Shown in pieces: positions 20,135 through 21,757 of a DNA stretch of 49,822 nucleotides; the first letter of the stretch is position 1; each line of letters opens with the position of its first letter. Below the pieces are notes generated by a model. The model was not told the DNA's origin, did no database searches, and worked only from the letters and a program-made list of their open reading frames with translations. Source of the DNA: Actinomycetota bacterium (lineage in GTDB: Bacteria; Actinomycetota; Acidimicrobiia; IMCC26256; PALSA-610). Position numbers and translations under genes: made by a program. The stretch is from positions 1 to 49,822 of the forward strand of contig SXHN01000043.1 of NCBI GenBank assembly GCA_005773635.1. Direction: 5' to 3'.

Positions 20135-20193
20135 ACGCACAGAATTGCACACGACGTGTAAGAAGGTCAACCACACTGCTGGGGCGGACAGAA

Positions 20194-20230
20194 GAGCGAT
20201 ATGAGTGACACGACACTCGTTGGGGCGGAC
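20194..20230. repeat. 37-bp direct repeat, copy 1
   Basis: Identical over 37 bases to 20287-20323, starting GAGCGATATGAGTGACACG and ending GTTGGGGCGGAC. Inside it, ATGAGTG-ACACGA-CACTCGT is a near-perfect hairpin (one G-T pair). The flanks are also related: GGGGCGGAC occurs a third time at 20181-20189. The repeat lies between the lipoprotein start and tRNA-Phe. Confidence 0.85.
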
Positions 20231-20286
20231 GAATTAGCCGGTACGCGAGGGTTCGCGGTGGCGATGGCAGCTCAGGAGCGACGGAG

Positions 20287-20323
20287 GAGCGATATGAGTG
20301 ACACGACACTCGTTGGGGCGGAC
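20287..20323. repeat. 37-bp direct repeat, copy 2
   Basis: Second exact copy, 93 bases from copy 1, ending 21 bases before the 3' end of tRNA-Phe. The spacer between the copies contains GGAGCGACGGAGGAGCGAT, so small sub-repeats are present too. Two copies only, too few for CRISPR. It looks like a small interspersed repeat inserted next to a tRNA. Confidence 0.85.
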
Positions 20324-20344
20324 GGAGTAGCCCCCATATACAAG

Positions 20345-20417
20345 TGGCCGGGACCGGCGTCGATCCGGTGACCTCACGCTTTTCAGGCGTGCGCTCTGCC
20401 AACTGAGCTACCCGGCC
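20345..20417 (-). tRNA. tRNA-Phe (GAA)
   Basis: Complete cloverleaf on the reverse strand. The acceptor stem is GGCCGGG/CCCGGCC, the D-arm GCTCAGTTGGCAGAGC, the anticodon stem CACGC/GCGTG with loop CTGAAAA (anticodon GAA), and the T-arm GGATCGACGCC-type loop. The discriminator is A; CCA is not encoded. It lies downstream of the Glu/Asp-like tRNA and is probably co-transcribed with it. Confidence 0.93.
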
Positions 20418-20442: not shown

Positions 20443-20447
20443 CGGAG

Positions 20448-20521
20448 CGGTCCAGACGGGACTTGAACCCGCGGCCTCCGCCTTGACAGGGCGGTGTCCT
20501 AGGCCACTAGACGATGGGGGC
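20448..20521 (-). tRNA. tRNA with GTC anticodon; apparent tRNA-Glu/tRNA-Asp chimera, possibly non-functional
   Basis: Reverse strand. The 5' half (GCCCCCATCGTCTAGTGGCC, then TAGGACACCGCCCT) is what I expect of an actinobacterial tRNA-Glu. The 3' half (GTCAAGGCGGAGGCC, GCGGGTTCAAGTCCCGT, CTGGACC) looks like tRNA-Asp, and the anticodon is GTC (Asp). The D-stem, anticodon stem (CCGCC/GGCGG) and T-arm pair, but the acceptor does not: GCCCCCA against CTGGACC gives only three of seven pairs. A normal partner for that 3' strand would be GGTCCAG. The junction falls in the CCGCCCT shared by both tRNAs. This could be a real deletion fusing neighbouring tRNA-Glu and tRNA-Asp genes, or an assembly collapse. 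CCA is not encoded. Confidence 0.7.
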
Positions 20522-21158: not shown

Positions 21159-21235
21159 GGGCTGCTAGCGCAATTGGTTAGCGCGTCGGACTTTTAATCC
21201 GCAGGTTCCGGGTTCGAGTCCCGGGCGGCCCACCA
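21159..21235 (+). tRNA. tRNA-Lys (TTT)
   Basis: Cloverleaf with acceptor GGGCTGC/GCGGCCC (one G-T pair), D-arm GCGCAATTGGTTAGCGC, anticodon loop CTTTTAA (TTT) and T-arm CCGGGTTCGAGTCCCGG. The 3' CCA is encoded. A -10-like TAAGAT at 21143-21148 sits ten bases before the 5' end, and a terminator hairpin follows immediately. The nearby integrase remnant suggests that this tRNA served as an attachment site. Confidence 0.95.
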
Positions 21236-21316: not shown

Positions 21317-21757
21317 TCAGTTTGAACGGGTAAAGGCGTTCCCGATAGCACTCGCTGCACTGTCGCTCATGCCGTCGGTGATGTGTTGATAGGTCCGCAT
21401 CGTGAAGGCAGGATCGGCGTGGCCGAGCACTGTACCGGCTATCGCCATGTGGACATCTTCTTGGAGCATCATCGTTGCGACGCCGTGACGGACATCGTGC
21501 AATCTCATCTTCGGGTCGAGTCCTGCACCGATAGCAATTCGTTTGAACCCTTGTGTGAACCCATCGGGTGATAGCGGAGATCCGTCGCCATGATCAGCGA
21601 TGAGGTCGTTGTCTTGCCAGACTCGACCGAGCGCCAACCGTCTCTGAGTTTGATCGACCTTGTGTTTCTTCAACCGTGTTTGAGGCTCGGCTAGACCGAA
21701 AAAATGTGGTTTTGAGTCGTGTTGATGAATGGCGGGCGGCAATTTGGTTGATGCCAA
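21317..21757 (-). pseudogene. Truncated tyrosine recombinase (phage-type integrase), C-terminal fragment
   Basis: Only the C-terminal catalytic part of an integrase is present. Recognisable homology runs from about 21679 to the stop at 21317. It has RLALGRVWQDNDLIADHGDG, then box II LHDVRHGVATMM (H-x-x-R), the following LGHADP and the nucleophile Tyr in MRTYQHI. The N-terminal arm-binding/SAM-like domain and the first catalytic Arg are missing. The upstream residues (MASTKLPPAIHQHD...) do not look like integrase. It cannot be an active recombinase alone. It ends 85 bases from tRNA-Lys, the typical place for an element integrated at a tRNA, so this is probably the scar of a lost or decayed island. 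Confidence 0.85.

What the first reader, a model, noticed from the sequence alone, without database searches (positions are those of the whole stretch)
20448..20521. tRNA that looks like the fusion of a tRNA-Glu 5' half with a tRNA-Asp 3' half
Seen: the D, anticodon and T arms fold, but the acceptor strands GCCCCCA and CTGGACC pair at only three of seven positions. The 5' half reads as tRNA-Glu and the 3' half plus GTC anticodon as tRNA-Asp; the junction is in CCGCCCT, shared by both. Known: tRNA-Glu, -Asp and -Phe genes often lie in that order in actinobacteria, and tRNA-Phe is next here. Inference: homologous deletion between neighbours, or assembly collapse. If real, the cell needs other Glu and Asp tRNAs, and this RNA may be dead or act otherwise.
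Basis: partly seen in the sequence, partly recalled or inferred. Interest (0 to 1): 0.7.

Follow-up and report, generated by a model that had tools for sequence, protein, structure and literature searches.

The report
Collapsed tandem Glu-Asp tRNA genes
Two neighbouring essential tRNA genes appear here as one broken hybrid because 77 bases between matching points are missing, most likely an error in this draft genome rather than a new kind of RNA.

Summary
On the minus strand, 20521-20448 joins the 5' half of tRNA-Glu(UUC) to the anticodon and 3' half of tRNA-Asp(GUC). Only 3 of 7 acceptor pairs form. Rfam matches only the D-to-T-arm core (41.4 bits), against 54.9 and 72.8 bits for the sibling's intact genes. 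The same-genus genome G001 has intact Glu(TTC), 1 nt, Asp(GTC), then Phe at this locus. Removing exactly 77 bp between two CCGCCCT words turns that into our sequence with no other change inside the hybrid.

The hybrid pattern occurs in none of the other 57 genomes of the order searched. This 125-contig draft has no other tRNA-Asp and no other tRNA-Glu(UUC), yet its genes use GAC, GAT and GAA freely, so the genome as assembled is not viable. The assembly breaks at tRNA genes more often than chance, and the junction lies between two tRNA words repeated elsewhere in the genome. A scan of 84,980 species found one further broken Glu/Asp hybrid, in a Rhodocyclales MAG. There both copies of the cluster are collapsed with different breakpoints and no tRNA-Glu remains.

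Best reading: an assembly or library deletion of a normal tandem. A recent real deletion is the main rival; raw reads would decide. Low interest.

The parts
20448..20521 (-). Hybrid tRNA sequence: 5' half of tRNA-Glu(UUC), anticodon GTC and 3' half of tRNA-Asp; acceptor pairs 3 of 7
20488..20521 (-). 5' part identical to sibling tRNA-Glu(TTC) positions 1-34 (GCCCCCA...CCGCCCT)
20448..20494 (-). 3' part identical to sibling tRNA-Asp(GTC) from CCGCCCT to the discriminator G
20488..20494 (-). CCGCCCT junction word, present in both parental genes; 77 bp of the sibling sequence are missing here
20344..20417 (-). tRNA-Phe(gaa), intact, third gene of the array

Best explanation
The organism has an ordinary tandem tRNA-Glu(UUC)-tRNA-Asp(GUC)-tRNA-Phe array here, and the draft genome has lost 77 bp of it. 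Shown: the hybrid is the sibling array minus 77 bp between the CCGCCCT words that begin the two anticodon arms. Inferred: the two genes share an anticodon stem (CCGCC/GGCGG), and the Glu D arm and Asp T arm are words repeated in other tRNA genes, so assembly paths or contigs end there and are rejoined wrongly, or a polymerase jumps between the stems during library preparation. The hybrid RNA is then not made in the cell.
For: (1) Sibling G001 has the intact array; 77 bp removed gives our sequence. (2) Of the loci read from 29 relatives, 25 carry both genes in this order and four show Asp-Phe with Glu beyond the contig end or not called; the hybrid pattern is in 1 of 58 genomes of the order, ours. 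(3) Own genome: no other Asp(GTC) and no Glu(TTC), only Glu(CTC). The sibling has one copy of each. Clear genes in the window use GAC 69, GAT 42 and GAA 56 times. tRNA-Asp(GUC) is the only decoder of GAY in bacteria (established knowledge). (4) Neither half has a single substitution against the sibling, although the stretch around the Glu leader is only 89% identical. (5) 7 of 40 tRNA matches lie within 300 bp of a contig end, where about 1 is expected (P = 7.5e-5). The sibling Glu-Asp segment shares 19 nt with tRNA-Glu(CTC) and 22 nt with the tRNA-His locus of this genome, on either side of the junction. (6) Parallel case: Rhodocyclales MAG G058 has broken hybrids in both copies of its Ala-Glu-Asp cluster, with different breakpoints, and no intact tRNA-Glu.
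Against: The longest exact word shared by the two sibling genes is 7 nt, far below usual assembly word lengths, so plain k-mer collapse does not explain it. There is no N run or contig end at the junction. Other tRNA genes present in the sibling are also missing from the draft (Ala tgc, Gly gcc, Val tac, Leu cag), so a second Asp gene could be unassembled. No reads were available.
Confidence: 0.77

Rival explanations
1. A real and recent 77-bp deletion in the sequenced population. Slippage between the matching anticodon stems fused the two genes, leaving a dead pseudo-tRNA. Intact tRNA-Asp and tRNA-Glu(UUC) genes lie elsewhere in unassembled sequence, or the deletion is a minority variant that the assembler chose.
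For: A 7-bp direct repeat with identical hairpin stems 77 bp apart suits slipped mispairing. Several tRNAs are missing from the draft, so further copies could be hidden. The shared word is too short for simple k-mer collapse.
Against: Sibling G001 holds one tRNA-Asp and one tRNA-Glu(TTC), both in this array. The own genome shows no trace of another copy. Neither half has decayed. Loss of single-copy tRNA-Asp would be lethal.
Confidence: 0.2
2. The hybrid is a functional RNA: a working Asp tRNA with an unusual acceptor end, or a pseudo-tRNA with a role outside translation, like tRNA-Other of Bacillus cereus.
For: The D, anticodon and T arms and the Asp discriminator G remain; Rfam still scores the core above its cut-off.
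Against: Acceptor pairing is no better than random. The predicted fold is not a cloverleaf, z -0.85 against -2.89 for the sibling Asp. No relative has it.
Confidence: 0.02
3. Site-specific recombination by a tRNA-targeting integrase between the two anticodon arms removed the 77 bp. An integrase remnant lies 800 bp away, next to tRNA-Lys.
For: Integration at tRNA genes is well known (Williams 2002, as cited in PMC2791219). An integrase C-terminal fragment is at 21317-21757.
Against: The two anticodon loops differ at two places inside a would-be 7-bp core (CTTTCAC against CTGTCAA). The remnant adjoins tRNA-Lys, not this site, and is truncated.
Confidence: 0.01

Closest known systems
Tandem tRNA-Glu(TTC)-tRNA-Asp(GTC)-tRNA-Phe(GAA) array of sibling genome G001 and its order
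   Same: Same locus, gene order and strand; both halves of the hybrid are identical to the sibling genes
   Different: 77 bp missing here, leaving one broken gene in place of two
Broken Glu/Asp hybrids in Rhodocyclales MAG JACPEH010000016.1 (L098, G058)
   Same: 5' half Glu, anticodon and 3' half Asp, broken acceptor, junction at the start of the anticodon arm, in a MAG without an intact tRNA-Glu
   Different: The cluster is in two copies with two different breakpoints; the spacer between Glu and Asp in relatives is longer
Pseudo-tRNA tRNA-Other of Bacillus cereus (PMC3399842)
   Same: tRNA-like gene that is not used in translation
   Different: [quoted passage not shown] this one occurs in a single draft genome and has no conservation
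Chimeric tRNA at a tra-cluster junction in Rickettsia peacockii (PMC2791219)
   Same: A tRNA gene described as chimeric
   Different: There it is attributed to integration of an element; here two neighbouring genes are fused with no element between

Membership tests
Functional elongator tRNA (RF00005) | Seven-pair acceptor stem | tested here: not met
   3 of 7 pairs; Rfam aligns positions 10-63 only
Functional elongator tRNA (RF00005) | D, anticodon and T arms | tested here: met
   Aligned and paired in the Rfam alignment, 41.4 bits
Functional elongator tRNA (RF00005) | Conservation at the orthologous place | tested here: not met
   Relatives have the two intact genes; hybrid pattern in 1 of 58 genomes of the order
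Deletion product of tandem Glu-Asp genes (real or in the data) | Both halves match the neighbouring genes of a relative, with one continuous block missing between direct repeats | tested here: met
   Exact 77-bp block between CCGCCCT words in G001
Assembly or library artefact | Intact sequence present in raw reads | not testable with these tools
   No reads available
Assembly or library artefact | The sequence as assembled leaves the cell without an essential gene | tested here: met
   No other Asp(GTC) or Glu(TTC) gene in the draft; the draft lacks some other tRNAs too, which weakens this
Pseudo-tRNA with a role outside translation | Expression or a deletion phenotype | not testable with these tools
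   No expression data

The most novel reading that the evidence does not exclude
The hybrid is real in the living cell and transcribed, and the cell either decodes Asp codons with a tRNA whose acceptor stem is largely unpaired or uses the RNA outside translation.
Probability: 0.01. Interest if true: 0.8.

Novelty: not a real feature. Interest (0 to 1): 0.1.

Why it matters
It matters mainly as a caution. Adjacent tRNA genes with shared anticodon stems can appear fused in draft genomes without any gap, and tRNA counts made from MAGs will then report missing essential tRNAs or odd tRNA variants. The Rhodocyclales case, where every tRNA-Glu gene of a genome is broken this way, shows it is not unique. 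If the deletion were real, the organism would be an unusual case of losing a single-copy essential tRNA.

Tried and rejected
A second tRNA-Asp or tRNA-Glu(UUC) gene in the draft was sought with the sibling segment: only the two halves of the hybrid, Glu(CTC) and weak matches to other tRNAs came up. A lineage-specific conserved hybrid was rejected. The other pattern hits in genome contigs were, but for one hit outside any tRNA, well-paired tRNAs with a Glu-like D arm and a GTC anticodon, and all seven viral hits were called as tRNA-Asp. The 22-nt inverted repeat between the hybrid's 5' end and the stretch just after tRNA-Phe (20328-20349) was considered as a displaced acceptor partner; it has no T arm before it, its TAGCC belongs to a small repeat, and the sibling sequence just after tRNA-Phe lacks it, so I take it as chance. 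Literature searches for fused or collapsed bacterial tRNA genes found nothing directly comparable. A search for 16S rRNA to place the organism found none in the draft.

Full report
What is there. On the minus strand, 20521..20448, lies a 74-nt tRNA-like sequence. Its acceptor strands GCCCCCA and CTGGACC pair at 3 of 7 positions; 42% of random 7-mers from the window pair with GCCCCCA at least as well. Rfam's tRNA model matches only positions 10-63, at 41.4 bits, and ARAGORN reports a truncated tRNA-Asp(gtc) at 20447-20513. Folded alone it does not form a cloverleaf (-28.3 kcal/mol, z -0.85), whereas the sibling tRNA-Asp folds much better than its shuffles (z -2.89). tRNA-Phe(gaa) follows at 20417-20344 and is normal.

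Where it comes from. The window lies in G000, a draft of 3.56 Mb in 125 contigs, 95% complete. The only other genome of its genus found, G001, has at the same place intact tRNA-Glu(TTC), one base, tRNA-Asp(GTC), then tRNA-Phe, scoring 54.9 and 72.8 bits for Glu and Asp. Cutting 77 bp from G001 between the CCGCCCT of the Glu anticodon arm and the CCGCCCT of the Asp anticodon arm gives our 74 nt exactly, with no substitution in either half. Of 29 relatives' loci read, 25 have the same Glu-Asp-Phe order, with gaps of 1 to 129 nt between Glu and Asp. A pattern joining a Glu D arm to a GTC anticodon occurs in only one of 58 genomes of the order, ours.

Could the cell live with it? Compiling the 40 tRNA matches of G000 gives no other Asp(GTC) and no Glu(TTC); Glu(CTC) is on another contig. 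Searching G000 with the sibling Glu-Asp segment found only the two halves of the hybrid, Glu(CTC) and weak matches to other tRNAs. G001 has one copy of each gene. Four clear genes in the window use GAC 69, GAT 42 and GAA 56 times. Since tRNA-Asp(GUC) reads both Asp codons in bacteria (established knowledge), the genome as assembled is not viable. The draft also lacks Ala(tgc), Gly(gcc), Val(tac) and Leu(cag), present in G001, so a hidden copy is not strictly excluded.

Real deletion or error. Three facts point to the data. First, the assembly is weak at tRNA genes: 7 of 40 tRNA matches lie within 300 bp of a contig end, with about 1 expected (P = 7.5e-5). Second, words on either side of the junction recur in other tRNA genes of this genome: 19 nt of the Glu D arm in Glu(CTC), and 22 nt of the Asp T arm in the tRNA-His locus, so a graph built with short words branches on both sides. 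Third, a scan of 84,980 species found one other broken Glu/Asp hybrid, in a Rhodocyclales MAG (L098, G058). In that genome both copies of the Ala-Glu-Asp cluster are collapsed, at different points, while relatives have intact clusters, and no intact tRNA-Glu is left. A cell without any tRNA-Glu cannot live, so that case is very probably an error, and ours looks alike. The scan pattern required an exact Glu D arm, so other hybrids may have been missed. Against this, the directly shared word is only 7 nt in the sibling, so the exact step that made the error is not known: a wrong join of contig ends or a polymerase jump between the identical anticodon stems are both possible, and both are inference. 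The same stems would also favour a real slippage deletion.

Verdict. The likeliest cause is a collapse of an ordinary tandem in the draft (0.77); a real recent deletion is the main rival (0.20); a functional hybrid RNA is very unlikely (0.02 or less). Raw reads would decide.

Noticed in passing
L098 4286-4361; L169; L171 (G058, Rhodocyclales MAG): Both copies of the Ala(ggc)-Glu-Asp cluster carry broken Glu/Asp hybrids with different breakpoints, and the genome has no intact tRNA-Glu. Probably the same type of assembly error.
   Followed up: yes
L071 6557-6962 (Rheinheimera lutimaris strain YQF-2): Four tandem, well-paired tRNAs with a tRNA-Glu body but a GTC (Asp) anticodon, between ordinary Glu genes. 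Five ordinary tRNA-Asp genes lie elsewhere in that genome. How they are charged is an open question. Single similar genes appear in L090 (Legionella MAG) and L091 (Fodinibius halophilus).
   Followed up: partly
window 20187-20239 and 20280-20332: A 53-nt intergenic repeat in two copies, 93 bp apart, just after tRNA-Phe; six weaker matches elsewhere in the genome, at least one near another tRNA gene.
   Followed up: partly
window 21317-21757, minus strand: C-terminal fragment of a tyrosine integrase (PF00589) next to tRNA-Lys(ttt) 21159-21235, perhaps the remnant of an element inserted at that tRNA.
   Followed up: no
G000:C30 end and G000:C72 end: Both contigs stop within 60 bp of a tRNA-Leu(aag) call; contigs of this draft often end in tRNA genes.
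   Followed up: partly
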